Shown here piece by piece: positions 8,150 through 64,000 of a stretch of 64,000 nucleotides of DNA. The first letter of the stretch is position 1. The number at the start of each line of letters is the position of its first letter. The position numbers and the translations under genes were made by a program. Below the pieces are notes generated by a model. The model had not been told where the DNA came from, made no database searches, and was given only the letters and a program-made list of their open reading frames with translations. The stretch comes from Tillus elongatus (taxonomy: Eukaryota > Arthropoda > Insecta > Coleoptera > Cleridae): the NCBI GenBank assembly GCA_964006375.1, contig OZ023267.1:84305406-84369405 (forward strand), given 5' to 3'.

Positions 8150-8790
8150 ATTACGACTTGTGAATATTCCAACAAAAAAGAATACAATCTGTGTACATAG
8201 ATTAAATAAACAATCGAATTACATTACCTAAATAAATTAAAAACTCTAAAATCAGATAGACAAACGCGGCTGATGCTGCAATCACTATCAAGATTCAATG
8301 ATACAGGGAAGAGGATTACCACACACCAAGGCAGTTCGAGTCCAAACTGAACCAAGATCTGGAAGCCATCAACAACATGAACCTTGGTACTGCAGTAGAT
8401 AAGAATTCATTAAAGATTCACATATTGAGTGTTTATCAGATAGTTGATCGATATCTAGATGAACTAACACATCATCATGAAGCTTGCTGAACATACATGT
8501 GAACCAACTTTCTTTCACCTGCACACATTGATCAAATCATAAGTGCAACAACGAGAAAACTACCACAGCATCTGGAGAGCATTTAATACCTGATACTTTG
8601 GTCGGAAATTGGTCACAGTCAGAAATATATTCATCTATACAGTTACTTCACAATGACATAGGTAACGTAATTTATGCTAATAAAAGTCACCGCGATTCCG
8701 TATAAGACGAAAAGGGAACCTATTCGTCTATAGAAGTACGCAATCAACTCCTAGGAGTGGATTATAACACGCAAGTCTTAAATCTAGAAT
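8150..8790 (+). pseudogene. Env1 remnant, copy 2
   Basis: Matches 21590-22130 along its length with stops and small deletions. It starts with a coiled-coil-like region encoded just upstream of 8400 and ends near the sequence GTGGATTATAACACGCA, where the copy breaks and a capsid-like fragment in the opposite orientation begins. Confidence 0.45.
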
Positions 8791-9065
8791 GTATTTTCTA
8801 ACGTTATTGTATCGATCCGTTTCAAATCTTACAATACCAAATCTAGGTCGGTTAGTGTTTGAGGAAGTCTTAATGGACCACAAGCGTTAAGTTGAATTAT
8901 TGAGATTCGGTAATTCATAAATTTCCCATTTTCTATATGGTAGAACCTTTTTATCCATACTAATCGACTTTAAATAATTGCTGTTGTATAACATCGTTGG
9001 GGTGAATATGTAGTACCATGTTAAACATTGAAGCTCTATCTGCATCTGCTGCGGCAACTAATTGG
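8780..9065 (-). pseudogene. Capsid-like protein fragment, copy 1
   Basis: Minus-strand copy of the capsid-like gene: includes codons for the KWEMYE block (around 8920-8950) and the start region near 9050. Only the 5' half is present, with frameshifts. The family is described at 13400-13912. Confidence 0.45.
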
Positions 9066-9094
9066 AACAATTTCTAGTTCTCCATATAAACGAA

Positions 9095-9200
9095 TTGTTA
9101 AATGCTCTTTTATATAGTCTTTGGAAATATTACATATCTTTACAGTATCAGGAGAGACCGCTGTCTAACAGATGTCCAACAGCTGCCTGACAACTGTCGT
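9095..9200 (-). promoter_or_regulatory. Promoter-like region of capsid-like gene: TATA box and CAGCTG
   Basis: On the minus strand a TATATAA box (ACTATATAAAAGAGC, 9105-9119) precedes the capsid-like fragment, and a CAGCTG palindrome (9180-9185) lies further upstream among repeats of the type GTCTAACAG/CCAACAGCTG. The same layout precedes every capsid-like copy. Confidence 0.45.
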
Positions 9201-9214
9201 GTCTAACTAATCGG

Positions 9215-9850
9215 TTGAATTTCGTTGTTGTGTGTGTCATTACGAGCGGCTTGATATGCTACTATAAGCCGCCTTCTATCAACCAACATGTTTATATCAT
9301 CCCAGTGAAGATACTCTTTCAGTTTCTTCCTATGCATCATGTATGGCATACCGTAACCAGAAGTTATGGAAGTATAACGTGACTTAACGCCTGCTTATTT
9401 TTCTAGAATTAGTTTTATTACTGGTTCATATTTGGGAGAATTGTTTCTTATAATGTCTTCTTGAAGATTGTTCTCCTTTCTGTGAAGACTAGTAGCTTTC
9501 ATAATATCTGCAAAATCAAGTAAAGCTTGTGAAGTTTTCGTAGCAGCCGTAACAGGTTTTCTCAAAAATATTGATTTCAACAGATGATTAGTACCAATTG
9601 TTACCAACCTTAATTTGAAGCTTTGTCCATTTTTATCATCTATGTTTAACAACAAATTTAATAGGCTTGTTGCCAAGCATCCAAGTTTTGGTAGTTTTAT
9701 TATAAATAACACTATATGTTCTATCACGTGAATGTTTCTCTGTGAAATATTTATCAACATAGTATTTGACACCAATAGGATATGAACTTAACATTCGTTC
9801 GTGAACTGAAAAACTGAATACCAACGTTTTTCAGTTAACCGAGATATATA
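9215..9850 (-). pseudogene. DRLRLL-type virus-like protein, copy 3
   Basis: Segments 9395-9775 and 9636-9824 cover the N-terminal and middle parts in two frames. The N-terminal frame carries PIGVKYYVDKYFTEKHSRD and then TWMLGNKPIKFVV. Upstream (to the right) the ATPase 3' end follows directly on the same strand, showing the original order ATPase then DRLRLL protein. Confidence 0.55.
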
Positions 9851-9859
9851 ACGTGATCA

Positions 9860-10535
9860 AACCCCTTGTGTTAAATCAGTATCTTTAAGAACAGCCATCA
9901 TAGTTTGTTTGTTTTGCCAAAACCCACCACAAAGGATTTTGAACTTTTCAAAACTCATATCGGTAGTTACATGATCATCATACACAAGACTAATTTCATA
10001 TTTAGTTCATTGATCGTTGTTGCCCTTACTTGGTGAAATTGTGCCACACTACTGGCTTCACAGTGAATCCAGAGAAGTTATCTCCAGTCTGTATGTAGTA
10101 ATTTCATCTTGTTTAAATAAAACTATGATGTTAGCATTATCACGCACCAATTCTTTCGGACACAAGTAAAAACTGTCAATATCTTAATTTCTACCTATAC
10201 AAAAATACGATCCCATTTTATCTTGCTTATCACAGGCTTCGTCATCTAATATAAAAATTGAATTGCTCTTTGCATATGTTGTGATCTAATATCTCTAGGT
10301 TTTCACTGTATAGATAACACCTATTGTAGCACAAAACACCTCCTTTAATATGTCATATTTAGGCTGATATATAAAGGCTATACGTATACGTATACGTTTT
10401 CAAATTTTAAGCTGTTTGCACCAAACAACAAACTTAACATAATATTTGTTAACCAGAACCGCTTGGACCACATATCAAACATCTAACTGAGGTTGGTAAA
10501 AGAAGTCCATGTCTTTGCTGTTTGGGTGATGATAA
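9860..10535 (-). pseudogene. Packaging-type ATPase remnant, copy 1
   Basis: Minus-strand copy of the P-loop gene: Walker-A region near 10460-10490, Walker-B-like region near 10225-10260, C-terminal part at 9890-10000. It is interrupted by a 99-bp foldback insertion (10000-10098). Such ATPases drive genome packaging in Polinton-like and other dsDNA viruses; that role is inferred from the motif and the neighbours. Many frameshifts. Confidence 0.5.
10000..10098 (+). mobile_element. Short foldback element, copy A
   Basis: A 99-bp insertion inside the ATPase gene with a 9-bp target duplication TAATTTCAT at 9991-9999 and 10099-10107. One part holds a short inverted repeat (CTGGCTTCAC / GTGAATCCAG) and the right end is GTCTGTATGTAG. 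The copy at 51421-51519 sits at the same position of another ATPase copy, so the insertion predates the duplication of that locus. Confidence 0.7.
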
Positions 10536-10639
10536 CATCAACTATTTGTGACTGTTGGCTTTTGCGTGTTTTATAATACGCATCGTTAACTAAACTAAAA
10601 CTTTTTACGACTGCTACATCCTATATAAATACGCAGATA

Positions 10640-10815
10640 TATCATACCTCATTAACAGTATAAATGTTGGTGTGTCTAGGTGAAGGTGTTGTTGACAAGT
10701 CATCAAAAAATTACCCATTGAGCTGCACGTACTTGGTTATCAGTTTTGTGGTCCAGGCACTAAACTTGAAGAACGTTTCACGAGACATAATTAACGCATC
10801 AATAATCTAGATCAG
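10640..10815 (+). pseudogene. Parvovirus-type PLA2 domain remnant, copy 1
   Basis: Divergent from the ATPase. Encodes the calcium-loop segment GYQFCGPGTKLEERF, then breaks before the catalytic His-Asp pair. Parvoviral VP1 PLA2 domains use this loop plus an HDxxY motif to breach endosomal membranes. The second half is missing here. Confidence 0.6.
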
Positions 10816-10931
10816 GAGATTGATATTGTATAATCATGATGCATACCAAAACTATAATACTTATAATGTGGTCACTTATGTTTACAATTTTTAAATAAAA
10901 GACTTGAACAGTAGTATCTGGTTTTCAGTCA

Positions 10932-13194: not shown

Positions 13195-13350
13195 CTATCA
13201 CGACAGCTGTTGGACAGCTGTGTGTCTAACACTACAGCTGTTAGACAGATACTAATTTGATAGAACAGCTTAAAGAGCTGTTGGGCAGCTGTTAGACGGC
13301 TGTCTGTCTTGATACCTTATACCTATGTAATATTTTCAAAGAGTATATAA
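13195..13350 (+). promoter_or_regulatory. CAGCTG array plus TATA box upstream of capsid-like gene
   Basis: Four CAGCTG palindromes (13204, 13215, 13235, 13286) within 90 bp, embedded in repeats of the form ACAGCTGTTGGACAGCTG, followed by a TATATAA box at 13343-13349 about 60 bp before the capsid-like coding region. CAGCTG is an E-box that bHLH proteins bind; whether it works here is unknown. The densest of the related arrays in the window. Confidence 0.5.
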
Positions 13351-13399
13351 GAGAGCTTTTCAGTAATTCGTTAATACGTTTAACTAGAAATTACCCATA

Positions 13400-13912
13400 C
13401 TTGATTGGCGCAGCAGATGCAGATAAAGCATTAATGTTTAAAATCTACTACATTTTCACCCCAACCATGTTATACAACAGCAATTACTATGGATAAAAAT
13501 GGTTCTTATACCATATAGAGAATGGGAAATGTATGAATTACCGAATCTCAATAATTCAGCTAAAGGCTCGTGGTCAATTAAGACTTCCTCAAACACTGAA
13601 CGACATAAATTTTTTATTATGAGATTTCAAACGTTTCGATACAATAACGTTAGAAAATACATCAACGTTCGAAAATACATTCCAGATATCCCCACAGCAG
13701 CTTTGAATTTGAACTTTAACCAAGTAAATTAAATCGAACGTTTGTATGTTGGTAGAGAACCTAAACCTACCTCGTATTAGAAGCACTTTACAAAATATTC
13801 CATGTTTGTATTTGATTGCTCCAGGTACAGCGATTTCATAAAGCAAGCTCCAGTGGATATCAAATTGGAAATCAAAAATACTAACAACTTTTCCGATCAC
13901 ACGAAATGTTTA
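13400..13912 (+). pseudogene. Capsid-like protein remnant, copy 2
   Basis: Frames along this stretch encode DADKAL, IPYREWEMYELPNLNNS, SIKTSSNTERHKF, LNLNFNQVN, VFDCSRYSD and APVDIKLEIKN. This block order is shared by uncharacterised arthropod proteins of virus-like DNA elements that carry PLA2 and packaging ATPase; a capsid role is inferred from that context, not shown. It is broken by stops and cut at 13912, where an Env1 fragment on the other strand begins. Confidence 0.45.
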
Positions 13913-14320
13913 GGCTTCTGTGACCAATTTTTGACCGAAGTATCGGGTATTAAATGCTCTCCAGATGCTGTGGTAGTTTTCCCGTTGTTGCGCTTATGAT
14001 TTGATCAATGTGTGCCGGTGAAAGAAAGTCGTAAATGTTAGCTTGGTTCACATGTATGTTTAGCAAGCTTCTATGATGATGTGTAAGTTCATCTAGATAT
14101 CATCAGCTAGCTGATAAACACTCAATATGTGAATCTTTAATGAATTCTTATCTACTGCCTTGTACCAAGGTTCATGTTGTTAGCTTCCCGATCTTGGTTC
14201 AGTTTGGACTCGAACTGCCTTGGTGTTGCGGTATATCCTCTTCCCTGTATCATTGAATCTTGATAGTGATTGTAGCATCAGCCCCTTTGTCTATCTGATT
14301 TTCGAGTTTTTAATTTATTT
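13913..14320 (-). pseudogene. Env1 remnant, copy 3
   Basis: Inverted copy of 8150-8640, truncated at the capsid junction. Forms the left end of the large inverted copy of the 3.6-8.7 kb block. Confidence 0.45.
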
Positions 14321-14329
14321 AGGTAATGT

Positions 14330-15950: not shown

Positions 15951-15969
15951 ATATATCTCGGTTAACTGA

Positions 15970-16680
15970 AAAACGTTAGTATCGAGTTGTTCAGTTCACG
16001 AACGAATGTTAAGTTTATATCCTATTTGTGTTAAATACTATGTTGATTAATATTTCACAGAGAAACATTCACGTAATACAACATATAGTGTTATTTATGA
16101 TAAAACCACCAACACTTGGATACTTGGCGACAAACCTATTAAATTTATTGTTAAACATAGATGACAAAAATTGCCATAGCTTTCAAATTATGGTTAGTAA
16201 CAACTGGTACTAATCCTCTGTTGGAATTAAAATTTTTGAGAAAACTTGTTACGACTGCTATGGAAAATTCGCAAGCTTTACCTGATTATGCAGATATTAT
16301 GAAAGCTACTAGTCTTCACAGAATAGAGAACGATCCTCAGATGACATTATAAGAAACAGTTCTCTCAAATATCAACAAGTAGTAAAACCAATTCCAGAAA
16401 AATTAGCAGGTGCTCAGTCACGTCCTACTTCCATAACTTCAGGTTATGGTATGCTACACATGATGCATAATAAGAAACTGAAATAGTATGTGCACTGGGA
16501 TGATATAAACGTGTTGTTTGATAGGCTGCGGCTTTTAGTGATTTCTCAAGCCGCTGGTATTAACGCATACAACAACGAAATTTAACCGATTATCGAAGAG
16601 TTTAAGGAAGTAGGTGTTATATAAACAGACAGAGTTGCGTGTTTGCGAGTTTCTGAAAATAATTTAAAACATCTAAACAT
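15970..16680 (+). pseudogene. DRLRLL-type virus-like protein, copy 4
   Basis: Mirror of 5835-6600. N-terminal piece at 16028-16213, middle at 16161-16352 (SQALPDYADIMKATSL), and the core near 16500-16570 as out-of-frame remnants. Decayed more than copy 2. Confidence 0.5.
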
Positions 16681-16759
16681 AATTGTTCAAAGAGAGACAT
16701 TTCCGAAAACTACAAGTGGGGATTTTTATTCACAAAACCATCAATTGTGTAAGAATGGC

Positions 16760-17190
16760 GAACCTATTCACCAAAATACGTTTCAAGGTGTTGAATGTAA
16801 AGTTTCCACTTAGCTTGCATCGCTCAGATTTTGTGTCCAGCAGATTCAGTATCTTACTTAGATATTCATTATTTAGTATATCAATATCATGATTTGCAGC
16901 ACTTGACAAATTATATCCTTAGTTAAAATTTTCAATTTGTCTTCAAACTCACTTTTAAGAGCAGCTAGATCTGTATTATGCACAGCCTAAAGAGTTATGG
17001 TGATTAGACTTTGTATTAGATCATCTTTATTCTTCTTATAATTATCGGCTCATCAATCTACAAATTTTATATTCACACCATCAGCAGGTTTGGTAGCATT
17101 ACCAACGTTATACAATTTTTGGTTTTGCACATCAGAATCGTTAATTACAGTTTCCGGACATACATTATACTTTATTGGCTGAAATTACAA
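16760..17190 (-). pseudogene. CC2 remnant, copy 2
   Basis: Inverted copy of 5395-5810 with more stops. It meets the DRLRLL copy tail to tail as in the 5.8-kb copy. Confidence 0.4.
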
Positions 17191-17754: not shown

Positions 17755-18190
17755 TGGCTCGATTTAAATCATCCTTAGTAGCAAACGTATTTTTCAGGTC
17801 AGCTTCAAGTTTTGAAACTGTCAGTCCTATATAGTCTTTTTGGAGCTTAGATATCCAGGTATCAACCATGGTAGCAAACGTATTACTAAGGGTAGACGTT
17901 GTTTGATGTATGAACTCCTTCATGTCCTTTCCAAGTCTAAGTAATGATTGATCCACACTAGTTTTAAGTCGAAATAAGGTAAGCTTCATGTTTAAAATCA
18001 GCATATTTTAAAATCTATATTCATATTCGTTTTTCCAATTCTGGCTTATGTAGTAGTATGGCATTTTGAAGTGTCACAGCATCTTTGTTCGTCTTATAGT
18101 TATCCTTATTTTCTGATAGTCATCTTTGGTTTTTTGATAGTCGTCTATCCATTCATCAACATTTTTTAATTTAGAGCATCTGTAGGTTGA
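17735..18190 (-). pseudogene. CC1 remnant, copy 2
   Basis: The 92-codon open segment 17726-18004 repeats the helical part (LLRLGKDMKEFIHQTTST, VSKLEADLKNTFATKDDL). The 5' part near 18010-18190 (DYQKTKDDYQK) is split off by frameshifts. The last codons run into the palindrome. Confidence 0.4.
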
Positions 18191-18194
18191 ACAG

Positions 18195-18726
18195 GATCGC
18201 CATTGTTACAGAATTGATGGTTTTGTGAATAAAAATCGCCTCTTGTAGTTTTCGGAAATGTCTCTCTTTCAACAATTCTGTTTAGGTGTTTTAAATTATT
18301 TGCAGAACCTCAGAATTTGTCGAACGGCATGTTAAAAGTTATTTAAAAAACGCAACTCTGCCTGTTTATTAAAACATACTTCCTTCAGTTCTTTGAAAAT
18401 CGGTTGAATTTCGTTGTTGTGTGCGTTCTTACCGGCGGCTTGAGAAGCCACTGAAAGCCGCAGTCTATCAAACAACACGTTTATATCATATACTCTTTCA
18501 GTTTCTTTATGTGCCGCATACCATAACCTGAGGTTATGGAAGTAGAACGTGGCTTGGCGCTTGCTTATTTTCTAGAATTGGTTTTACTACTTGTTGATTT
18601 TGAGAAAACTGTTTCTTATAATGTCTTCTAGAGGATCGTTTTCTTTTCTGTGAAGACTAGTAGCTTTCATAATCAGGTAAAGCTTGCGAATTTTCCATAG
18701 CAGCCGTAACAGGTTTTCTCAAAAAA
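18195..18726 (-). pseudogene. DRLRLL-type virus-like protein, copy 5
   Basis: Mirror of 3830-4290. The copy ends abruptly at 18726 in codons for the RKPVTAAMENSQALPDY region, where Env2 3' sequence is joined on. Confidence 0.5.
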
Positions 18727-24046: not shown

Positions 24047-24240
24047 CGACGTATGTGTTTTCAAATTTTAAGCCGTTTGGACCAAACAACAAACTTAACA
24101 TAATATTTCTTAACCATAACCACTTGGACCACATATCAAACATCTAACTGAGGTTGGTAAAAGAAGGCAATATCTGATGTTTGGGTAATGATGATGTGGT
24201 AACAACATCATCTATGTTGTGACTGTTGGCGTTTGCATGT
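24047..24240 (-). pseudogene. Packaging-type ATPase N-terminal fragment, copy 2
   Basis: Contains the Walker-A region and the segment LSLLFGPNGLKFENTYV on the minus strand. Cut at 24047 by the Env1 join. Divergent from the PLA2 fragment at 24360. Confidence 0.5.
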
Positions 24241-24359
24241 TCTACAATACGCATCGTTAACTAAACTAAAACTTTGTACGAATGCTACATCCTATTTAAA
24301 TACGCAGATATATCATACCTCATTAACAGTATAAATGTTGGTGTGTGAAGGTGAAGGTC

Positions 24360-24480
24360 TTGCACACAGTAATCAAAAATTACCTTTGGACTGCACGTAC
24401 CTGGTTATCAGTTTTGTGGTCCAGACCCTAAATTTAAAGAACGTTTCACGAGTATCAAGGCATCAATACTCTAGATCGTG
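24360..24480 (+). pseudogene. PLA2 domain remnant, copy 2, ending in a hairpin
   Basis: Loop region decayed (the CGP loop now reads through TCCAGACCC). The frame ends at a 36-bp palindrome (24471-24506: CTAGATCGTGCTTG, 8-base loop, inverse) exactly where the codons for the catalytic His-Asp should be. Confidence 0.55.
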
Positions 24481-24612
24481 CTTGCCTCTGGACAAGCACG
24501 ATCTAGATGATTGATATTGTATAATTATGATGCATACCAAAACTATAATACTTATAATGTGGTCACTTATGTTTACAATTTTTAAATAAAAGACTTAAAC
24601 AGTAGTATGTGT

Positions 24613-24689: not shown

Positions 24690-25340
24690 CCGTTATTAAA
24701 ACCTCACTTTGACTAATTGCTCGTGCTTGCAAATTTCACAGATATAACACTATACCAGACATAGAGCGTATGTGTAATAGTTTCACTACTTTTCTGCTGT
24801 GAGTGGTGATAAGAGTCGGCTAGAAATGATTATTCCTGATGGTTCGTATGAAATCAGTGATATCGAGAAATACATTGAGAATGAGCATTTCGTCTTATAG
24901 TAAGGATAAACATCAGTAGCGAACAACATCGACGTGGTAAAGCTGTTTCCACTAAAAGCCAACAACAACACTTTAAAATGTGAGATAACATGTCAGTATC
25001 ATATAGACTTTTCTACCGATGCTTCAATAGCCCCAATATTGGGTTTTTTTAAACAACGTATTACCACTGGTAAAGTTCATGTTTCTGATTTACCGGTGGA
25101 AATTGTGATAGTGTAATATTGTAGATGGCAAACCTACGCATACAGTATATGAGTTTACTCCTATGGTAGATCCAGGTGACGCCGTTGATATATAACCATA
25201 TAGTAAGGTTTTTATCCCACTTACTTTATTTCGCATATTGTCGATCAGAATTGAGTAGTTGTGACGTTTCAAGGTGAGGAGATCATTGTGATATTAGAAT
25301 TGAGACAGAGATCACCATATTATGTTGATTATAAATACCA
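24690..25340 (+). pseudogene. Second structural-type viral protein remnant, copy 1
   Basis: Frames encode MIIPDGSYEISDIEKYIENE, then 24934-25116 KANNNTLKCEITCQYHIDFS, SIAPILGFFKQRITTG and SDLPVEIVIV, and the tail VTFQGEEI-type end. Uncharacterised arthropod proteins with these blocks occur next to capsid-like genes of Polinton/adintovirus-type elements; a minor-capsid or penton-like role is a guess. At least four frame breaks. Same strand and immediately upstream of the capsid-like gene. Confidence 0.4.
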
Positions 25341-25359: not shown

Positions 25360-26115
25360 TTCAGTATATTCGGTTCCTGCATAAGACGATTCTATCTTGG
25401 GAGCACATGCAGTATCTAGATCAATTAGGTACCGATATTAAGCAGACTACATATATTCGCTGACCCTGTGCACGACGAGTCAATCAAAGGGAAAGAAATA
25501 CACACATAGGCTTCTCAAACCAGTTCGTTTGCCCATATGATACCTGTGATTCTGCAATCAACCAACAAGATACTTTTACGTTTGGTCTTCTGCTGTTCTA
25601 CTAATAATAGGCAGTAGGGAGACGAGTGGCACGATTGGAGATGTGAAAGTGACATCTAAAGCAGCAGCCCGATTATTGAACATGTGAGAAATCTTGGTAT
25701 AGTTACAACAATTCGAACACTTTTGGAAGGAAGCAGTGATGAAGCAAGAGCTCTAATTCAAGCCGGGTGAAGTCCTACTATATACAATACAATGCTGAAG
25801 GATGGCCGTTTTTGGTACTGCATACCTCCTTGCTACTTGTGTAATATTTTCAAATACAATAGAAGCGTGTTTTTGCGGTTAGTAACTAAAGCCCAGAGCG
25901 AAACAAATTGCTTTATTTTCATTAGAGCAGTCGACGCAGATAAAGCATTATAGTTACATTGATTACATGGCACTGCAGGTGAAACTTATCCACCTAAGCG
26001 AAGTTATCCAGAAACAATTATCGCAGTCGATTGCCCTAAATAAAAAGATCCTCGTACCATATAGAAAATGGGAAACGTATGAATTATCAAATCTGAATAA
26101 TTCAACATCCAAAAG
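25360..26115 (+). pseudogene. Capsid-like gene 5' region, copy 3
   Basis: Follows the second structural gene. The part up to about 25860 shows broken frames with no motif I can name. From about 25900 one frame reads HYMALQVKLIHLSEVI-type sequence and ILVPYRKWETYELSNLNNS, the capsid-like N-terminal block. It stops at a (TA)n tract. An inverted copy lies at 47661-48440. Confidence 0.4.
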
Positions 26116-42655: not shown

Positions 42656-42658
42656 AGT

Positions 42659-47660: not shown

Positions 47661-48440
47661 TTGAATTATTCAGATTTGATAATTCATACGTTTCCCATTT
47701 TCTATATGGTACCAGGATCTTTTTATTTAGGGCAATCGACTGCGATAATTGTTTCTGGATAACTTCGCTTAGGTGGATAAGTTTCACCTGCAGTGCCATG
47801 TAATCAATGTAACTATAATGCTTTATCTGCGTCGACTGCTCTAATCAAAATAAAGCAATTTGTTTCGCTCTGGGCTTTAGTTATTAACCGCAAAAACACG
47901 CTTCTATTGTATTTGAAAATATTACACAAGTAGCAAGGAGGTATGCAGTACCAAAAACGGCCATCCTTCGGCATTGTATTGTATATAGTAGGACTTCACC
48001 CGGCTTGAATTAGAGCTCTTGCTTCATCACTGTTTCCTTCCAAAAGTGTTCGAATTGTTGTAACTATACCAAGATTTCTCACATGTTCAATAATCGGGCT
48101 GCTGCTTTAGATGTCACTTTCACATCTCCAATCGTGCCACTCGTCTCCCTACTGCCTATTATTAGTAGAACAGCTGAAGACCAAACGTAAAAATATCTTG
48201 TTGGTTGATTGCAGAATCACAGGTATCATATGGGCAAACGAACTGGTTTGAGAAGCCTATGTGTGTATTTCTTTCCCTTTGATTGACTCGTCGTGCATAG
48301 GGTCAGCGATTATATGTAGTCTGCTTAATATCGGTACTTAATTAATCTAGATACTGCATGTGCTCCCAAGATAGAATCGTCTTATGCAGGAAGCGAATAT
48401 ACTGAAGCTGGGGAGGCGTGATTGCTGGTATTTATAATCA
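47661..48440 (-). pseudogene. Capsid-like gene 5' region, inverted copy
   Basis: Inverted copy of 25360-26110 with high similarity, so the two loci share a recent ancestor. The (TA)n tract present at 26144 is absent here; H2B flank sequence is joined at the same place instead. Confidence 0.4.
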
Positions 48441-49080
48441 ACATAATATGGTGGTCTCTGTCTCAATTCCAATATCACAATGATCTCCTCACCTTGAAAC
48501 GTCACAACTACTCAATTCTGATCGACGCGGTTTACATTTATATGCAAAATAATGCGGGTCGTAAGTGGGATAAAAACCTTACTATATGGTTGTATATCAA
48601 CGGCGTAACCTGGATCTACCATAGGAGTAAACTCATATACTGTATGCGTAGGTTTGCCATCTACAAATTACACTATCACAATTTCCATCGATAAATCGAA
48701 AGGATGCACTTTACCAGTGGTAATACGTTGTTTAGAAAACCCAAATATTGGGGTAGAAAAGTCTATATGATACTGTCATGTTATCTTACATTTTAAAGTG
48801 TTGTTGTTGGCTTTTAGCGAAAACAGCTTTACCACGTCGATGTTGTTCTCTACTTCAGGGTACTGATGTTTATCCTTAATATAAGACGCAATGCTCATTC
48901 CGAATGTATTTCTCGATATCACTGATTTCATACGAACCATCAGGAATAATCATTTCTAGCCGACTCTTATCACCACTCACAGCAGAAAAGTAGTGAAACT
49001 TTTACACACACGCTCCATGTCTGGTATAGTGTAGTCTAGTATAGTTATATCTGTGGAAGTTTGCAAGCGCGAGCAATTAG
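48440..49080 (-). pseudogene. Second structural-type viral protein remnant, copy 2
   Basis: Inverted copy of 24690-25340, interrupted by frameshifts around the KANNNTLKCE block (near 48790-48830). Tandem partner at 49845. Confidence 0.4.
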
Positions 49081-49272
49081 CCAAAATGAGGTTTTAACAC
49101 TAACGGTGGAAATATTTCAATCGACGTAGAGCCATTGAAAGCAAGCGCACGCGCATTGACTGAAACACAGATACTACTGTTTAAGTCTTTTATTTAAAAA
49201 TTGTAAACCTAAGTGACCACATTATAAGTATTATAGTTTTGGTATGCATCATGATTATACAATATCAATCAT

Positions 49273-49548
49273 CTAGATCGTGCTTCTCGAGAGGCAAGCA
49301 CGATCTAGAGTATTAATGCCTTGATTATTCTTGAAACGTTCTTTAAATTTAGTGTCTGGACCACAAAACTGATAACCAGGTACGTGCAGCTCAACAGGTA
49401 ATTTTTGATTACTGTGTGCAAGACCTTCACCTTCACACACCAAAATTGATACTGTTAATGAGGTATGATATATCTGCGTATTTAAATAGGATGTAGCATT
49501 CGTACAAAGTTTTAGTTTAGTTAACGATGTGTATTGTAAAACATGCAA
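49273..49548 (-). pseudogene. PLA2 domain remnant, copy 3
   Basis: 91 codons: a 50-residue N-terminal stretch, then LPVELHVPGYQFCGPDTKFK, GINTLDRACLSRSTI and stop. The calcium loop is nearly intact (Gly to Asp in CGPDT). The frame ends at a hairpin (49273-49308, 13-bp arms around CTCGAGAGGC) that replaces the HDxxY codons. A starting Met is present, but no catalytic residues. Confidence 0.65.
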
Positions 49549-49599
49549 AAGCCAACAGTCACAACATAGATGTTGTTGTTACCACATCATCATTACGCA

Positions 49600-49844
49600 A
49601 ACAACAGACATGGCCTTCTTTTACCAACCTCAGTTAGATGTTTGATATGTGGTCCAAGTGGTTATGGTTAACAAATATTATGTTAAGTTTGTTGTTTGGT
49701 CCAAACGGCTTAAAATTTGAAAACACATACGTATACACAAAGCCTTTATATATCAGCCTAAATATAGCATGTCAAAGGAGGTGGTGTATCCTACAAGAGG
49801 TGTTTGATACTATCTGAAAAGTGAGACCGAAGAGATATTGGATC
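49600..49844 (+). pseudogene. Packaging-type ATPase N-terminal fragment, copy 3
   Basis: Contains the CGPSGYG P-loop start followed by a frame break, then SLLFGPNGLKFENTYVYTKP. Truncated at 49844 by the tandem-duplication junction. Confidence 0.5.
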
Positions 49845-50480
49845 AACATAATATGGTGGTCTCTGTCTCAATTCCAATATCACAATGATCTCCTCACCTT
49901 GAAACGTCACAACTACTCAATTCTGATCGACGCGGTTTACATTTATATGCGAAATAATGCGGGTCGTAAGTGGAATAAAACCTTACTATATGGTTTTATA
50001 TCAACGGCGTAACCTGGATCTACCATAGGAGTAAACTCATATACTGTATGCGTAGCTTTGCCATCTACAATATTACACTATCACAATTTCCATCGGTAAA
50101 TCGAAAGGATGCACTTTACTAGTAGTAATACGTTGTTTAGAAAACCACAATATTGGGGTAGAAACGTCTATATGATACTAACATGTTATCTTACATTTTT
50201 AAAGTGTTGTTGTTGGCTTTTAGCGAAAATAGCTTTACCACGTCGATGTTGTTCTCTACTGTAGGGTACTGATGTTTATCCTTAATATAAGACGCAATGC
50301 TCATTCCGAATGTATTTCTCGATATCACTGATTTCATACGAACCATCAGGAATAATCATTTCCAGCCGACTCTTATCACCACTCACAGCAGAAAAGTAGT
50401 GAAACTATTACACACACGCTCTATGTCTGGTATAGTGTTATATCTGTGATAGTTTGCAAGCGCGAGCAATTAGCCAAAGT
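49845..50480 (-). pseudogene. Second structural-type viral protein remnant, copy 3
   Basis: Tandem duplicate of 48440-49080 with scattered differences. Confidence 0.4.
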
Positions 50481-50665
50481 GAGGTTTTAACACTAACGGT
50501 GGAAATATTTCAATCGACGTAGAGCCATTGAAAGCAAGCGCACGCGCATTGACTGAAACACAGATACTACTGTTTAAGTCTTTTATTTAAAAATTGTAAA
50601 CCTAAGTGACCACATTATAAGTATTATAGTTTTGGTATGCATCATGATTGTACAATATCAATCAT

Positions 50666-50941
50666 CTAGATCGTGCTTCTCGAGAGGCAAGCACGATCTA
50701 GAGTATTGATGCCTTGATTACTCTTGAAACGTTCTTTAAATTTAGTGCCTGGATCACAAAACTGATAACCAGGTACGTGCAGCTCAACAGGTAATTTTTG
50801 ATTACTGTGTGCAAGACCTTCACCTTCACACACCAACATTGATACTGTTAATGAGGTATGATATATCTGCGTATTTAAATAGGATGTAGCATTCGTACAA
50901 AGTTTTAGTTTAGTTAACGATGCGTATTGTAAAACATGCAA
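50666..50941 (-). pseudogene. PLA2 domain remnant, copy 4
   Basis: Duplicate of 49273-49548 (GYQFCDPGTKFKERF here) with the same terminal hairpin at 50666-50701. The calcium loop carries Gly to Asp at a different position from copy 3. Confidence 0.65.
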
Positions 50942-50999
50942 AAGCCAACAGTCACAACATAGATGATGTTGTTACCACATGATCATTACGCAAACAGCA

Positions 51000-51665
51000 G
51001 ATATGGCCTTATTTTACCAACCTTAGTTAGATGTTTGATATGTGGTCCAAGTGGTTATGGTTAACAAATATTATTTTAAGTTTGTTGTTTGGTCCAAACG
51101 GCTTAAAATTTGAAAACACATACGTATACACAAAGCCTTTATATATCAGCCTAAATATAGCATGTCAAAGGAGGTGGTGTATCCTACAAGAGGTGTTTGA
51201 TACTATCTGTACAGTGAGACCGAAGAGATATTGGATCCAAGAGATGCAAAGAACAATTCAATTTTTATATTAGATGATGTAGCCTCTGATAAGCAAGATA
51301 AAATAAAATCATATTTTTGTATAGGTGGACATTAAGATATTGTCAGTTTCTACTTGTGTCCGAAACAATTGGTGCGTCATAATGCTAACATCTTAGTTTT
51401 ATTTAAACAAGATGAAATTACTACATACAGACTGGAGATAACTTCTCTGGCTTCACTGTTAAGCCAGTAGTATGGTACAGTTTCACCAAGAAAGTGCAAC
51501 AGTCATCAATGAATTGAATATGAAATTAGTCTTCTGTATGATGATCATGTAACTACCGATATGAGTTTTGAAAAGTTCAAACTCCTTTGTGGTGGTTTTC
51601 GGCAAAACAAACATATTATGATGCCTGTTGTTGAAGATACTAATTTAACACAAGGGGTTTGATCA
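51000..51665 (+). pseudogene. Packaging-type ATPase remnant, copy 4 (most complete)
   Basis: Walker A: CLICGPSGYG at 51032-51061, where the next codon is a stop/frameshift in place of the essential Lys-Thr. Then SLLFGPNGLKFENTYVYTKP, Walker B-like IFILDDVASDKQDKIK (51260-51310), and the C-terminal ETDMSFEKFK-type part at 51540-51600. It is interrupted by foldback insertion D. The DRLRLL gene follows. Acidic LDD and the P-loop match the HerA/FtsK or A32-like packaging class only in outline. Confidence 0.55.
51421..51519 (-). mobile_element. Short foldback element, copy D
   Basis: 99-bp insertion with a 9-bp duplication ATGAAATTA (51412-51420 and 51520-51528). Same site as copy A, so inherited with the ATPase segment. 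Confidence 0.75.
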
Positions 51666-51694: not shown

Positions 51695-51980
51695 TTGGTA
51701 TTCAGTTGTTCAGTTTACGAACGAATGATAAGTTCATATCCTATTGGTGTAAAATACTATGTTGATAAAAATTTCACAGAGAAACATTCACGTGAGACAA
51801 CATATAGTTTTAAGTTTATTTATGATAAAACCACCAACAAACCTATTAAATTTGTTTTTAAATATAGATTAAAAAAATGGATATAGCTTTCAAATTATGG
51901 CTGGTTATTACCTGGTTATTACCAATTATTATTGGTACTAATTATCTGTTGAAATTGATATTTTTGAGAAAGCCAGTTCT
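51695..51980 (+). pseudogene. DRLRLL-type virus-like protein N-terminal fragment, copy 6
   Basis: SSYPIGVKYYVDKNFTEKHS in frame, then remnants up to the LKLIFLRKP region, where it is truncated. Confirms the ATPase then DRLRLL order. Confidence 0.5.
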
Positions 51981-52334
51981 GAGCTGGCTTTTAATTAAAA
52001 GTCAACTCAGAAGCCATGTTTAATCTATTTGGACCGGGCAGATTATCCTGGAAAACATTGCTTTGTTTCAATTAGACAATCGGATTCCCCCGTCCATACC
52101 TGTTCTGAGCTGGCTTTTGATTAATCTTACTATGTTTATTCACACAAGCAATTAACAGTTAGGCTTCGGTCATTGAATAAAAAAGTAATGTACTCTAGTT
52201 TTCGTACAAGCAAGTGAAACGTAGGCTTCGCCTCGCTGATAAACTAGATTTACTATATTTGGACTAAGTTCAATATACCTATTCATGCGAGTGAATAAAA
52301 GTTGTTTGAAAATGAAATAAATGAGGATGAAGAA
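51981..52334. other. Unrecognised sequence with TCTGAGCTGGC repeats
   Basis: TTCTGAGCTGGCTTTTAATTAA at 51976 recurs at 52108; a short hairpin (CTGAGCTGGC...GTCAACTCAG) is possible. Two copies of a TAGGCTTCG segment. No coding signal. Confidence 0.4.
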
Positions 52335-54574: not shown

Positions 54575-55110
54575 ACTAGAAATTTCTCCAATTTGTTTCC
54601 CGCAGCAGATGCAAATAAAGCTTTAACGTTTAACATTGAATGCATGGTACTACATATTCACCCAAACGATGTAATACAACAGCAATTAGTAAAGTAAACT
54701 ACTATGGATAAAAAGGTTCTTACACCATATAGAAAATGGGAAATGTATAAATACCGAATCTCAAAAATTCAACTTAAGGCTTGTGGTCCATTACGACTTC
54801 CTCAAACGCTGACCGGCCAAGATTTGTTATTGTAAGATTTGAAACGGATTGATACAATAACGTTGGAAAATACATTCGAGATCTAAGACTTTCCTTAAAT
54901 TATAAGCAAATCCCCACAGAAGGTATGACTCTAAACTTAAAACAAGTAAATTACATCGAGCGTTCGTATGTTGGTAGAGAAACAACACCTACCTTGAATT
55001 ACAACGCTTTTATAAAATATCCCATGTTTGTATTACCTCGGATTAGAAGCCCTTTACAAAATATTCCATGTTTGTATTTGATTGCTCCAGGTACAGCGAT
55101 TCCATACAAA
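54575..55110 (+). pseudogene. Capsid-like protein remnant, copy 6
   Basis: Plus-strand remnants from CADANKAL-type start through a degenerate KWEMY block to NLKQVNYIERSYVGRE (54925-54985) and a YLIAPGTAI region. It then turns into its inverted partner. Confidence 0.42.
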
Positions 55111-55560
55111 CATGGGATATTTTGTAAAAGTCTTATAATCCAAGGTAGGTGTAGCTTCTATACCAACATACGAACGCTTGATATAATTTACTGGGTTAAA
55201 GTCAAATTCATACCTCCTGTGGGGATTTATTTAGAATTTAATTGAAGTCTTATATCCCGATTATATTTTATAACGTTGATGTATTTTCTAACGTAATTGT
55301 AACGATCAGGTTGCAATCTCACAATAACAAATCTAGGTCGTTCAGTGTTTGAAGAAGTCTTAATGGACCACAAGCCTTTAGTCGAATTAGTGAGATTCGG
55401 TAATTCATACATTTCCCATTTTCTATATGGTATATAAACCTTTTTATCCATAGTTATCGACGTTAATAATTGTTGTTGTATAACTTTGTTTGGGGTGAAT
55501 ATATTTGACCTGCAGTACCATGCATTCAATGGTAAGGATTAAAGTTTATTTGCATCTGCT
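55100..55560 (-). pseudogene. Capsid-like protein remnant, inverted partner
   Basis: The open segment 55227-55529 (100 codons) reads IPYRKWEMYELPNLTNSTKG, SIKTSSNTERPRFVIVRLQ and YVRKYINVIKYN: the best copy of this block in the window. The fold-over point is near CCAGGTACAGCGATTCC. Confidence 0.5.
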
Positions 55561-55609
55561 GCGCCAATCAAATTGGAGCAATTTCTATTTATGCGTATTA
55601 ACAAACTGC

Positions 55610-55700
55610 TGAAAAGCTCTCTTATATAGCCTTTGAAATTAGAGGTATAGTAATAAACACATAGCTGGCCAACAGCTGTTGCGATAGACGACTAACAATA
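55610..55700 (-). promoter_or_regulatory. TATA/CAGCTG region of the inverted capsid-like copy
   Basis: Minus strand: GGCTATATAAGAGAGCT (55616-55632) with CAGCTG at 55673 upstream. Mirrors 54390-54550; paralogue b starts ~200 bp to the right on the plus strand. Confidence 0.5.
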
Positions 55701-55869: not shown

Positions 55870-56440
55870 AAAAGATTTTAGTACGACACAAAACAAAACT
55901 TGCTGAAAACATTCGAAATCACTTTTGCATCCTTTAAACAGGCATTAATGATGAAATTAAACTAGATAAAATAGAAGGTTTGCTAGAATTGGTTTTTATG
56001 TAAAGGCCTAAGGCATATACTTATGACGTTCTTCGACACTATAAAGATATTCTGGGATCAAACAGTGTTTATAGAGTTAAATAGACTCCGAATGGGTGAA
56101 CTAATGTTTCTCAGTAAAGTATCTAACTCTAACGGAACCAATGACAAATCCTTGAGCGGAACATCCTCAACTCCACACGGTTTTGGTGACGACACACATC
56201 TTAACTTAAAACAAAAACCCAACCTAAAATTCACAATGTAAATGATAGAAAAATCAGCACCAGCAAGGGGATGATACAAAATAGCAAGCAAATAAAATAT
56301 GTAAATGGGGATGACATCAATGAGTTAGTTGATAGACATAGAGTTCTAGTACCTCCTCAAGTAGCTGATAATAATGCTCATAACAACTAAATTCAATCAA
56401 TCATTGAAGAACTGAAAGAAGCAGACGTTACCGCCTAGTA
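55870..56440 (+). pseudogene. DRLRLL paralogue (type b), fullest copy
   Basis: N-terminus TKLAENIRNHF, middle KIEGLLELVFM and AYTYDVLRHYKDILGSNSVY, C-terminal core NGDDINELVDRHRVLVPPQV and IQSIIEELKEADV with one stop inside. The core aligns with the DRLRLL protein (WDDINVLFDRLRLL, ILEELKEV), which links the two as paralogues. It follows a capsid-like gene divergently. Confidence 0.5.
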
Positions 56441-61499: not shown

Positions 61500-61905
61500 A
61501 TGACATCGGGGATGTCATCTGTTGTATGTATGGCCAGGTGAAGATGGTGACACTCTGGATGAAGATGGAAAAATATACGGAGTCCCAACAGGCAACCAGT
61601 GCACAATTGCAGCAACATTTGGAAGACCTTAATCCGAGGGAAACAACCAAAAAAGCTACGGAGGCAAAGAAATCACCTGCGTGAACATCCGGAGCCCAGG
61701 AAGTTATATTAGCTAAAACAGGATTGATAACACGGCATTTATGTAATATACAAGGAGAAAGGGCAAAGCTGCAAGGAGACAACCGCAAACACGTGTTTCA
61801 GGCTAATTAGCCATCATCAGTACGGTATGGCCAGGTGAAGATGGTAACACTCTGGATGAAGATGGCTGTACCGTACTGATGATGGCTAATTAGACCTTCA
61901 GGTCT
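61500..61905. repeat. Ribozyme-bearing repeat with inverted arms
   Basis: A TGAAGATGG-containing segment is repeated at 61536 and 61826. Inverted arms GGCTAATTAGCC...TACGGTA (61801-61827) and the reverse (61869-61895) flank the second copy. It resembles a Penelope-type terminal repeat. Confidence 0.5.
61781..61828 (-). ncRNA. Hammerhead ribozyme, all elements intact
   Basis: Minus strand: stem I ACCGTA/TGCGGT (six pairs), CTGATGA, stem II GGCT-AATT-AGCC, GAAA, self-complementary stem III CACGTG, cleavage site TT. The loop-less stem III implies action as a dimer, as known for Penelope-type hammerheads. The best candidate in the window. Confidence 0.75.
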
Positions 61906-62149
61906 TGTAAACACAGTTATTAACAAGCTACCTGTTGAGTTACACATACCTTGTTATCAATTTTGCGGTCCAGGTACTAAACTTAAAGAACGTCTTGCTA
62001 GAGGTGATCAAGGTATCAATCTGCTAGACCGTACTTGTCGAGACCATGACATCGCTTACTCTCAATCAAAAGAGTTGAGTGATAGGCATCGAGCCGACGA
62101 AGTGTTTGAGAGAGTTAAATCGAAAGACGCAAGTTTTGGTGAAAAGTAA
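61890..62149 (+). CDS. Parvovirus-type PLA2 domain with complete catalytic motifs
   Basis: Open frame without its own start codon: the calcium loop YQFCGPGTKL, then LLDRTCRDHDIAYSQSKEL with the catalytic His-Asp and the Tyr, then a helix (RHRADEVFERVKS) and stop at 62147. Length after the loop fits VP1-type PLA2 domains. The only PLA2 copy here with both motifs. The N-terminus runs back into ribozyme repeat sequence at about 61890. A protease gene follows after ~10 bp. Likely role in the original virus: membrane breach during entry. Confidence 0.7.
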
Positions 62150-62159
62150 AGATTTTGTA

Positions 62160-62533
62160 AAATTTGCTGGTAAAATGAAACTCCCATATTTTAGAGGTGT
62201 ATACATGCGAGATGAGCTACCTCGAAGGGGACCACGTAAAAATGAATCATTTATCATGAATTTACAAAATACAAAGAGCCTGGCAGTCATTGGGTTGCAG
62301 TGAGGAAACGTGGTAACACAACCGAATACTTTGACTTATATGGAAACTTTAAGCCACCAGTCGAGTTGCAACGTTACCTTAAAGACTCTAGTCTAGGAAT
62401 GTCTATCGAAATGTTCAGACCTACTCATTGTACAAAATTGTACAATGAGAGTCATTTAAATTTTTGTCAGAATGAAGCGGTTCGGTTTTGTATAAAATTT
62501 TATAAATTAGATATAAACATGGAAAGTAAATGA
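62160..62533 (+). pseudogene. Adenovirus-type cysteine protease remnant
   Basis: First frame: MKLPYFRGVYMRDELPRRGP and KNESFIMNL; after a frameshift near 62280: GSHWVAVRKRGN with the catalytic-type His, TEYFDLYGNFKPPVELQRYL with the Asp-type position, and a tail (TKLYNESHLNFCQNEAVRFC, IKFYKL). This order (GxHWV, YFD..G..PP.EL) matches the Ulp1/adenain clan used by Polinton-like viruses to mature capsids. The expected catalytic Cys in the tail is not evident (AVRFC at that place). Frame-broken. Confidence 0.6.
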
Positions 62534-62814
62534 AAAATTATGATGGGAAAGTAATGATGGATCTGTAAAGATTAGTAGTAAATGAAGTCAGTGATTAGAA
62601 ATGTAAGATGGAAGAGAAAATGTTATAAAAACTTTATTTAAAATGGGTTGTCAAAATTCGAAGTGTCATATTTGGATAATGCAGTGTCAAGTATTTTTAG
62701 AATAAACTGTTTAAATTATGTCACTATATACAAGGCAAGTCAAAATGGACTTACTGTATAGACGTATTTTGTAATTTCAGCCAATAAAGTATAATGTATA
62801 GTGTATGTCCGGAA
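62534..62814. other. Non-coding spacer of the virus-like element
   Basis: Also present at 5150-5390 and, inverted, at 17190-17410. No gene recognised. Confidence 0.5.
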
Positions 62815-63190
62815 ACTGCAATTAACGATTCTGATGTGCAAAACCACAAATTGTGTAACGTTGGTAATGCTACCAAACCTGCTGATGGTGTGAATATAAC
62901 ATTTGTAGATTGATGATCAGATAATTATAAGAAGAATAAAGATGATCTAATACAAAGTCTAATCACCATAACTCTTGAAGCTGTGCATAAAACAGATCTA
63001 GCTGCTGTTAAAGTGAGTTTGAACACAAATTGAAAAAATTAACTAAGGATATAATTTCTCAAGTGCTGCATGATATTGATATACTAAAGAATAAAGTTCT
63101 AAGTAAGATACTGAATCAGCTGGACACAAAATCTCAGTTGTACAAGCTAAGTGGAAACTTTACATTCAACCCCTTGAAACGTATTTTGGT
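62815..63190 (+). pseudogene. CC2 remnant, copy 3
   Basis: As 5395-5810, with NHKLCNVGNATKPADGV and helical segments split by stops; ends at the same tail-to-tail join with a DRLRLL copy. Confidence 0.4.
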
Positions 63191-63754
63191 TGACTAGGTT
63201 CGCCATTGTTACACAATTGATGGTTTTGCGAATAAAAATCCCCACTTGTAGTTTTCGGAAATGTCTCTCTTTGAACAATTATGTTTAGATGTTTTAAATT
63301 ATTTTCAGAACCTCAGAATTTTTCGATCGGCATGTTGAAAGTCATTAAAAACACGCAACTCTGTCTGTTTATATAACACCTACTTCCTTCAATTCTTCGA
63401 TAATCGGTTGAATTTCGTTGTAGTATGCGTTAATACCAGCGGCTTGAGAAGTCACAAAAAGCCGCAGCCTATCAAACAACACGTTTATATCATCCCGGTT
63501 CACATACTATTTCAGTTTCTTATTATGCATCATAGGTAGCATACCATAACCTGAAGATATGGAAGTAGGACGTGACTTAGCACCTGCTAATTTTGTAAAA
63601 TTGGTTTTATTACTTGTTGATATTCTAGAGAACTGTTTCTTATAATGTCTTCTTGAGGATCGTTCTCTTTTCTGTAAAGACTAGTAGCTTTCATAATATC
63701 TGCATAATCAGGTGAAGCTTGCGAATTTTCCATAGCAGCCGTAACAGGTTTTCG
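63190..63754 (-). pseudogene. DRLRLL-type virus-like protein, copy 7
   Basis: Matches 5835-6330. Several stops. Confidence 0.5.
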
Positions 63755-64000
63755 CCATTGTTACACAATTGATGGTTTTGTGAATAAAAATCGCCACTTG
63801 TAGTTTTCGGAAATGTCTCTCTTGGAACAATTCTGTTTAGATGTTTTTATTATTTGCAGAACTTTAAAGTTTTTCTATCGGCATGTTGAAAGTGATTTTA
63901 AAAACGCAACTCTGCCTGTTTACATACTTCCTTCAGTTCTTCGATAATCGGTTGAATTTCGTTGTTGTGTGCGTTACTACCAGCGGCTTGAGAAGTCACT
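63755..64000 (-). pseudogene. DRLRLL-type virus-like protein, copy 8, cut by window edge
   Basis: A second C-terminal piece in direct repeat with copy 7, joined inside GTTTTC/GCCATTG. It continues beyond the window. Confidence 0.45.

What the first reader, a model, noticed from the sequence alone, without database searches (positions are those of the whole stretch)
8780..64000. Many fragments of one virus-like DNA element with PLA2, packaging ATPase, adenain-type protease and capsid-like genes
More than 30 pieces across the window belong to about eight genes. Motifs read directly: CGPGT loop and HDIAY (PLA2), CGPSGYG and LDD (ATPase), GSHWV and YFDLYG (protease), IPYRKWEMYE (capsid-like), KANNNTLKCE (second structural), FDRLRLL (unknown). 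PLA2 of this kind is known from parvoviruses; the ATPase plus adenain-type protease pair is known from Polintons and adintovirus-like dsDNA viruses. Overlapping copies give a gene order with the ATPase divergent from PLA2. An endogenous lineage combining these, multiplied like a transposon in an insect genome, would be of wide interest. The virus assignment is inference from motifs and co-location.
Basis: partly seen in the sequence, partly recalled or inferred. Interest (0 to 1): 0.85.

Follow-up and report, generated by a model that had tools for sequence, protein, structure and literature searches.

The report
Polinton fragments amplified near chromosome middles
The window holds broken pieces of a known kind of insect virus-like element (a Polinton or adintovirus), and in this genome one defective version of it was copied many times as blocks that sit in one narrow region near the middle of the chromosomes examined, which looks like centromere-region DNA built from a virus.

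Summary
Pieces of seven genes of a Polinton/adintovirus-type element are present: 39 pieces of six genes (13.9 of 64 kb: A32-type ATPase, PLA2, penton, double-jelly-roll capsid, 'FDRL', fibre-like) plus five protease pieces. They start at 3.6 kb, not 8.8 kb. The gene combination is not new: insect Mavericks with PLA2, ATPase and protease are in print (PMC5803895), and a penton relative is named 'Bos-associated insect adintovirus 2'. What looks new is how and where the pieces multiplied. Copies share one internal deletion joint and one inverted capsid|FDRL joint. A 21-base tag occurs 199 times in the 1.72-Gb genome; the 100 listed places, all on C1-C4, lie in one narrow cluster per chromosome at 0.48-0.53 of its length. 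Stretches of about 9.5 kb are 97.5-99% alike on C1, C2, C7 and C14. PLA2-domain hits of intact-looking relatives are scattered: 0 of 77 on C1-C4 fall in those clusters. Best reading: a defective Polinton amplified as a satellite-like composite, probably pericentromeric. Centromere function is untested.

The parts
3635..4197 (+). FDRL gene piece
   Evidence: tblastn with family B protein
4247..4594 (+). fibre-like coiled-coil gene piece
5417..5734 (+). fibre-like gene piece
5802..5942 (-). fibre-like gene piece
5992..6577 (-). FDRL gene piece
8788..9061 (-). DJR capsid piece, inverted, joined to FDRL at about 9196 (joint also in loci on C1, C2, C7, C8, C14)
9209..9809 (-). FDRL gene piece
9841..10583 (-). 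A32-type ATPase piece
10699..10815 (+). PLA2 N-terminal piece, ends at shared deletion joint
10823..10893 (+). adenain-like protease C-terminal piece after the deletion joint
13305..13921 (+). DJR capsid piece (PF21738 E=3.2e-9 for 13442-13729)
15991..16621 (+). FDRL gene piece
16676..16768 (+). fibre-like gene piece
16894..17175 (-). fibre-like gene piece
18110..18330 (-). fibre-like gene piece
18380..18673 (-). FDRL gene piece
24048..24254 (-). ATPase piece
24373..24485 (+). PLA2 N-terminal piece, ends at shared deletion joint
24514..24584 (+). protease C-terminal piece after the deletion joint
24734..25113 (+). penton (second structural) piece
25441..26104 (+). DJR capsid piece
34109..34282 (+). 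DJR capsid piece
44400..44854 (+). DJR capsid piece
44820..45173 (-). DJR capsid piece
47662..48325 (-). DJR capsid piece; joined at 47659/47660 to the histone-bearing block (joint also on C9, L031)
48671..49130 (-). penton piece
49221..49265 (-). protease C-terminal piece after the deletion joint
49294..49446 (-). PLA2 N-terminal piece, ends at shared deletion joint
49603..49843 (+). ATPase piece; 48437-49844 is a direct copy of 49842-51237 (96.2%)
50197..50523 (-). penton piece
50614..50658 (-). protease C-terminal piece after the deletion joint
50687..50839 (-). PLA2 N-terminal piece; holds the 21-base tag at 50761-50781 used for the genome count
50920..51656 (+). ATPase piece
51710..52017 (+). 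FDRL gene piece
54578..55109 (+). DJR capsid piece
55072..55652 (-). DJR capsid piece (PF21738 E=4.6e-12 for 55230-55538)
55980..56429 (+). FDRL gene piece
61886..62146 (+). PLA2 piece without the shared deletion but with a different one at 62146/62150 (PF08398 E=8e-11; 80% aa identity to family B)
62279..62392 (+). adenain-like protease piece (GSHW...YFDLYG)
62791..63125 (+). fibre-like gene piece
63196..63285 (-). fibre-like gene piece
63372..63754 (-). FDRL gene piece
63760..63837 (-). fibre-like gene piece
63928..63999 (-). FDRL gene piece at the window edge
34851..35192 (+). histone H2B-like remnant, part of the composite blocks (another at 46810-47151; a similar frame at 58241-58528 was not scanned)
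   Evidence: Pfam PF00125 E=3e-10 and 1.8e-9

Best explanation
The pieces are remains of a Polinton/adintovirus-type element related to families that still look intact in the same genome. One defective derivative arose (shown by shared joints): about 0.9 kb was lost between PLA2 and the protease, with about 30 bases filled in backwards at the joint, and the left arm after the FDRL gene was replaced by an inverted copy of the right arm from the middle of the capsid gene onward. The derivative became part of composite blocks that also hold histone H2B and retroelement-like remnants (shown). Those blocks were multiplied by duplication, often as inverted pairs whose tags lie 7.6 kb apart (spacing shown), inside one narrow region per chromosome near its middle, and exchanged between chromosomes so that distant copies stay 97.5-99% alike (likeness shown; exchange by ectopic recombination or gene conversion inferred). 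The frames are broken, so no protein is expected; the DNA behaves like a satellite-type component of (peri)centromeric heterochromatin (place near chromosome middles shown for C1-C4; centromere identity inferred).
For: Gene identity and order. Shared deletion joint (family B position 655 joined to 1568-1587, or 1628 in one copy of L021/L022) in 4 of 5 window PLA2 copies and in most other cluster copies checked; the backward filler from 1573-1603 is resolved in 6 loci (L026-L030, L032), and 28 of the 68 rows are the matching reverse-strand hairpin. Inverted capsid|FDRL joint at window 9196 in loci on C1, C2, C7, C8 and C14 (5 of 19 outside loci; map). The tag occurs 199 times, backward control 0; all 100 listed places are in clusters on C1 (0.484-0.486 of its length), C2 (0.522-0.525), C3 (0.481), C4 (0.500-0.508). 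A C2 copy as query: 40 scored of 3533 candidates, all on C1, C2, C4, C7 in such places or on C14 (0.75 Mb) and C20. The window's copy: 40 scored of 2387, on C6 84.2-85.5 Mb, C9 61.5-61.8, C7 62.07-62.40, C8 44.37, C1, C2, C14; these lie at 0.39-0.56 of C6-C9. On C6, 7 samples outside 84.2-85.5 Mb are covered 0-3% by cluster sequence, 3 inside 0, 44 and 100%. Control: of 77 PLA2-domain hits on C1-C4, 0 in those clusters, KS p 0.21-0.94 against even spread. 19 of 32 neighbouring +/- tag pairs are 7.4-7.65 kb apart, at most 3 in 2000 random placements; on C1 the two arms match over 2045 bp at 97.8%. K2P 0.002-0.118 among 19 copies.
Against: Only the first 100 of 199 tag places are listed and they stop in C4; C5 was never seen, C6-C9 only through best-scoring hits. 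The tag is exact, so diverged copies elsewhere would be missed. No centromere marker was available, and the C8 place (0.39) is not central. The PLA2 control is chosen by score, so age and place are confounded in it. L029:6818-7665 lacks the deletion, L019 is a variant, and the window copy at 61.9 kb has a different deletion, so more than one derivative is present. One inside sample (84.6 Mb) has no cluster sequence, so the cluster is not a continuous array. Of 42 window positions tested for shared joints 25 were found in none of the 19 outside loci, though these loci cover only parts of the blocks.
Confidence: 0.75

Rival explanations
1. The clusters are pericentromeric piRNA-type loci: graveyards that keep old transposon and virus pieces because their transcripts feed small-RNA silencing of the young families.
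For: Mixture of diverged elements in both orientations, with related intact-looking families elsewhere. PMC12910113 (passage read) states that piRNA clusters usually lie in pericentromeric and subtelomeric regions and consist of diverged element copies.
Against: No small-RNA data. The deleted copies share only about 70% DNA identity with family B (80-87% for the copy at 61.9 kb), which is low for silencing it. Near-identity of about 9.5-kb stretches between chromosomes and the repeated 7.6-kb inverted pairs point to amplification, which this idea does not need.
Confidence: 0.2
2. The deleted derivative multiplied as a non-autonomous Polinton, moved by proteins of intact families that prefer heterochromatin through the integrase chromodomain.
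For: Both intact-looking families code an rve integrase with a below-cut-off chromodomain match; a shared deletion is what a non-autonomous family shows.
Against: PLA2-domain hits, mainly of families with that integrase, are spread over the arms, 0 of 77 in the C1-C4 clusters. The pieces travel with unrelated neighbours through shared joints.
Confidence: 0.1
3. Ordinary decay: heterochromatin simply keeps old copies of any element, and these pieces are unremarkable relics of many separate insertions.
For: The pieces are broken; the four deleted window copies differ by K2P 0.028-0.104; the regions also hold other elements.
Against: Separate insertions would not share one deletion joint with the same backward filler, nor the same capsid|FDRL inverted joint on six contigs, nor show 97.5-99% identity over stretches of about 9.5 kb between chromosomes.
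Confidence: 0.1

Closest known systems
Insect Mavericks/Polintons with a PLA2 'CAP' (Spodoptera Sf Maverick 1 and 2, PMC5803895, passages read)
   Same: A32-like ATPase, integrase, PLA2 protein related to parvovirus VP1, adenain-like protease; the related intact-looking families here share these genes.
   Different: That paper reports PolB and no homologue of the PY capsid; here a DJR capsid (PF21738) is present, and family B showed no PolB-like ORF in the pieces read. The window copies are defective and clustered.
Adintoviruses (Starrett 2021, not held, known from reference lists and recall; Drosophila-associated adintoviruses in PMC8363768, passages read)
   Same: Penton of the related family A is 48% identical over its full length to 'penton [Bos-associated insect adintovirus 2]'.
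   Different: The window holds only degraded derivatives; integrase pieces were not found in it and PolB was not tested.
Satellites derived from Polinton coding sequence, e.g. locust LmiSat34-299 (PMC4935994, passage read)
   Same: Polinton coding DNA turned into an amplified repeat.
   Different: Its name gives a 299-base monomer; here the unit is a multi-kilobase composite with inverted pairs and non-Polinton blocks.
CENH3-enriched Polinton-like repeat cluster CL198 in Tribolium castaneum (PMC7598501, passage read)
   Same: Polinton-like DNA enriched 2.12-fold in CENH3 chromatin of a beetle.
   Different: Only its table row was seen; position and structure unknown to me. Here CENH3 is not tested.

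Membership tests
[quoted passage not shown]
   PF21738 in both window pieces scanned, E=4.6e-12 and 3.2e-9; intact relatives 6.5e-58 and 1.5e-115
Polinton/Maverick (adintovirus-type) | Minor capsid (penton) protein | tested here: met
   Three window pieces match the family penton, one of whose homologues is named penton of an insect adintovirus; no Pfam model matched it
Polinton/Maverick (adintovirus-type) | A32/FtsK-type packaging ATPase | tested here: met
   Window pieces match relatives that hit PF04665 Pox_A32, E=1.2e-10 and 2.9e-8
Polinton/Maverick (adintovirus-type) | Adenain/Ulp1-type cysteine protease | tested here: inconclusive
   Window piece matches the relatives' protein (E=3e-12); Pfam support is only a below-cut-off C48 match, E=0.0015, in family B and none in the window piece or family A part
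Polinton/Maverick (adintovirus-type) | Retrovirus-like integrase | tested here: not met
   No match in the window (E<0.01), so the window copies are not complete members; matches lie in the C9 cluster, L031:560-1057, E=1e-20, and in L041, E=1e-11, origin not settled; both intact-looking families have rve
Polinton/Maverick (adintovirus-type) | Protein-primed DNA polymerase B | not tested
   The PF03175 search of the genome did not complete; family A has a PolB-like ORF recognised from memory, partly withheld, not pursued
Polinton/Maverick (adintovirus-type) | Long terminal inverted repeats and target-site duplications | not tested
   Ends of the elements were not mapped
Centromeric/pericentromeric repeat | One confined region per chromosome, shared by chromosomes | tested here: inconclusive
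   Met on C1-C4: 100 of 100 listed tag places; C6-C9 by best hits only; C5 not seen
Centromeric/pericentromeric repeat | Association with the centromeric histone | not testable with these tools
   No chromatin data

The most novel reading that the evidence does not exclude
A defective DNA virus genome of the Polinton/adintovirus kind became the main building block of the centromeres of this insect: its inverted-pair blocks are what the kinetochore chromatin sits on, and they spread from chromosome to chromosome while intact relatives of the same virus group stay out of them.
Probability: 0.2. Interest if true: 0.85.

Novelty: new variant of a known kind. Interest (0 to 1): 0.58.

Why it matters
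If the clusters are centromeric, a DNA-virus-derived element would be a founder of centromere-region DNA in an animal, alongside the known retroelement-derived cases, and the shared deletion joints give markers with which spread between chromosomes can be followed. The same genome holds scattered, intact-looking relatives, eight of which are 99.6-99.9% alike, so young virus-like elements and a derivative turned into a chromosome-structural repeat can be compared directly.

Tried and rejected
Rejected: the PLA2 + ATPase + protease combination as new (PMC5803895). Rejected: a separate parvovirus insertion as source of PLA2, since in the relatives it lies in the element's own gene row. Set aside: the big blocks at 1.6-3.0, 6.8-8.1, 14.3-15.8 and 59.4-61.5 kb as parts of the element; they look by eye like envelope and gag parts of an LTR element (Pfam gave nothing above cut-off), and I did not test this further. 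Led nowhere: Pfam on FDRL (three below-cut-off hits to unrelated families), on the 322-, 271-, 315-, 221- and 112-residue ORFs (nothing above cut-off) and on the protease pieces. A first count of +/- tag pairs (19 of 24) used a hand-picked list and is superseded by the full list of 100 (19 of 32). Not obtained: capsid-family (PF21738) and PolB-family (PF03175) counts in the genome and the C5-C9 tag list, because the genome machine did not answer.

Papers: PMC3671162, PMC11071308, PMC8363768, PMC4061559, PMC5803895, PMC7598501, PMC12910113, PMC7859515, PMC4935994 and PMC11541908 were seen as passages only; all others as search listings. That a Polinton-built centromere-region composite is not in print rests in this library alone.
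Full report
Setting. The window is G000:C6:84305406-84369405 of a 1.719-Gb, 30-contig assembly. No organism is named. The few named relatives of capsid and penton are leaf and seed beetles (Diorhabda, Psylliodes, Callosobruchus), a Trichogramma wasp and an insect adintovirus; most relatives are unnamed. A beetle host is plausible but inferred.

What is there. Pfam supports PLA2 (PF08398, E=8e-11) and double-jelly-roll capsid pieces (PF21738, E=4.6e-12 and 3.2e-9); two further PLA2 pieces stay below the cut-off and the protease piece has no hit. The genome search with PF08398 scored 150 of 1347 candidates, most in open frames of about 275 or 304 residues. From some of these copies I read two intact-looking families in short stretches. 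Family A (L001-L010): integrase, FDRL gene and ATPase on one strand; PLA2, a small basic core-like protein, protease, penton, capsid and a 161-residue ORF on the other. Seven family A loci are 99.6-99.9% identical to the eighth over 3.2 kb. Family B (L023, L033-L036) has the same row, with a 160-residue fibre-like gene between FDRL and integrase and the core part fused to PLA2. Pfam for the relatives: Pox_A32, rve plus a below-cut-off chromodomain, DJR, PLA2. Family A penton is 48% identical to a protein named penton of an insect adintovirus.

tblastn with 16 family B proteins finds 39 merged pieces of six genes in the window (FDRL, fibre-like, ATPase, PLA2, penton, capsid), 13.9 kb; the reversed window gave 1 hit and one Markov shuffle 0. 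Family A's protease adds five pieces, making seven genes and 44 pieces. No integrase, and none of family B's 322-, 271-, 163-, 145-, 315-, 221-, 112- or 560-residue ORFs, appears in the window at E<0.01. Calling the 160-residue gene fibre-like rests on its look and a below-cut-off Phage_T7_tail match (E=0.0013).

How the copies are related. In four of five PLA2 copies in the window, PLA2 stops near residue 53 and the protease follows near residue 67. Against family B this is one deletion between positions 655 and about 1578 of L023, with about 30 bases from 1573-1603 turned round at the joint; BLAST resolved this filler in L026, L027, L028, L029, L030 and L032, and 28 of the 68 rows are reverse-strand matches of the same short stretch. 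The joint is in copies from C1, C2, C6, C7, C8, C9 and C14; exceptions are L029:6818-7665 (undeleted there), L019 (a variant), the second copy in L031 (no left side) and the fifth window copy, which has a different deletion at 62146/62150. A second shared rearrangement joins FDRL near residue 156 to an inverted capsid piece, followed on C1, C2, C7 and C14 by the 163-, 145- and 112-residue ORFs of the right arm. In family B these lie at the far end of the row, so the left arm was replaced by an inverted right arm. The joint at window 9196 is found in loci on C1, C2, C7, C8 and C14. This resembles snap-back defective genomes of linear DNA viruses (recalled), but could equally have arisen in the chromosome. 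Of 42 window positions tested for shared joints, 17 are found in at least one of 19 outside loci and 25 in none; the positions came from self-alignment ends, include some that are not true joints, and the loci cover only parts of the blocks.

Where they are. A 21-base PLA2 tag, absent from the 13 loci of intact-looking families held then, occurs 199 times, with 0 for the pattern read backwards. The first 100 places are listed: 18 on C1 within 0.55 Mb, 26 on C2 within 0.91 Mb, 2 on C3 within 20 kb and 54 on C4 within 1.56 Mb, at 0.484-0.486, 0.522-0.525, 0.481 and 0.500-0.508 of each chromosome. The window copy as DNA query (40 scored of 2387 candidates) gave 29 copies on C6 84.2-85.5 Mb, 4 on C9, 2 on C7, 2 on C14 and 1 each on C1, C2, C8. 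A C2 copy (40 scored of 3533) gave 22 on C4, 7 on C14, 5 on C2, 3 on C1, 2 on C7, 1 on C20. The places on C6, C7, C8 and C9 are at 0.555-0.563, 0.416-0.418, 0.390 and 0.456-0.459. Candidates are a loose first look and no copy number. Ten 4-kb samples along C6: the seven outside 84.2-85.5 Mb are covered 0-3% by cluster sequence, the three inside 0, 44 and 100%. As control, the 77 of 150 PLA2-domain hits that lie on C1-C4 include none in the cluster intervals and do not depart from even spread (KS p 0.21-0.94). Those hits are chosen by score, so age and place are confounded in this control; but the tag itself marks the old family, and its 100 listed places are confined.

Large-scale shape. Of 32 neighbouring +/- tag pairs 19 are 7.4-7.65 kb apart; -/+ 0 of 32, +/+ 0 of 16, -/- 0 of 16; 2000 random placements gave at most 3. 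On C1 the two arms match over at least 2045 bp at 97.8%. Over about 9.5 kb, C1, C7 and C14 stretches are 97.6-98.6% alike, and the C2 stretch matches them in three pieces at 97.5-99% with a gap of about 0.5 kb; stretches from C6, C8 and C9 share shorter pieces at about 79-91% with these. Nineteen copies of the 470-base block differ by K2P 0.002-0.118: an old founder with amplification that went on until recently. The composite includes histone H2B remnants (PF00125) and stretches that look like LINE and envelope pieces (by eye; the ones scanned gave no Pfam hit above cut-off).

Reading. The best account is a defective Polinton/adintovirus genome turned into a satellite-like composite confined to one mid-chromosomal region per chromosome, probably pericentromeric. 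Shown: gene identity, shared joints, confinement of the listed tags on C1-C4, near-identity between chromosomes. Inferred: the route of exchange and the centromere link. An integrase chromodomain could target heterochromatin, but the PLA2 hits of families with such an integrase do not cluster, which speaks against it. Precedents found: a locust satellite with Polinton homology (PMC4935994) and a Polinton-like CENH3-enriched cluster in Tribolium (PMC7598501); the passages read do not describe such a composite.

Limits. The genome machine answered only four requests. C5 was never seen. PolB and terminal repeats are untested, and part of a PolB-like ORF is withheld.

Noticed in passing
L036:2765-4447 (-), beside family B genes: A 560-residue ORF with matrixin (PF00413, E=1.2e-26) and hemopexin (4.9e-7) domains lies next to the right-arm ORFs of one family B copy. 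It was seen in one copy only, so whether it belongs to the element is open. No paper in the library holds both 'matrix metalloproteinase' and 'polinton'.
   Followed up: partly
L023, L033-L036 (family B, pieces from copies on C1, C2, C3, C5): No PolB-like ORF of 100 residues or more was seen in pieces that together span about -9.3 to +10.1 kb around PLA2, and these pieces hold no N. About 100 of the 150 scored PLA2 hits share this copy's match span and nearly its score. A 271-residue ORF looks like a PolB N-terminal part (recalled). Family B may depend on another family's polymerase.
   Followed up: partly
genome-wide: Signs of young bursts of PLA2-bearing Polinton-type elements: 150 scored of 1347 candidates, many with the same score and open frames of 275 or about 304 residues; eight compared copies are 99.6-99.9% alike.
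   Followed up: partly
window 34851-35192, 46810-47151, 58241-58528: Three histone H2B-like remnants embedded in the composite blocks; the first two were confirmed by Pfam, the third only by its similar frame.
   Followed up: partly
window 3843-8618 and 13918-18725: Inverted duplication, 91.7% over 4.9 kb, of mixed retroelement-like and Polinton pieces.
   Followed up: no
window 38237-42667 (-): A largely open Ty3/gypsy-type element in two frames (gag, protease, RT, RNase H, integrase), with a 233-bp direct repeat at 38096-38328 and 43126-43358, 99.6% alike, which suggests a recent insertion.
   Followed up: no
window 10908-11834 (+): DDE_1 transposase remnant, PF03184 E=1.8e-11, just right of the protease piece at 10823-10893.
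   Followed up: no
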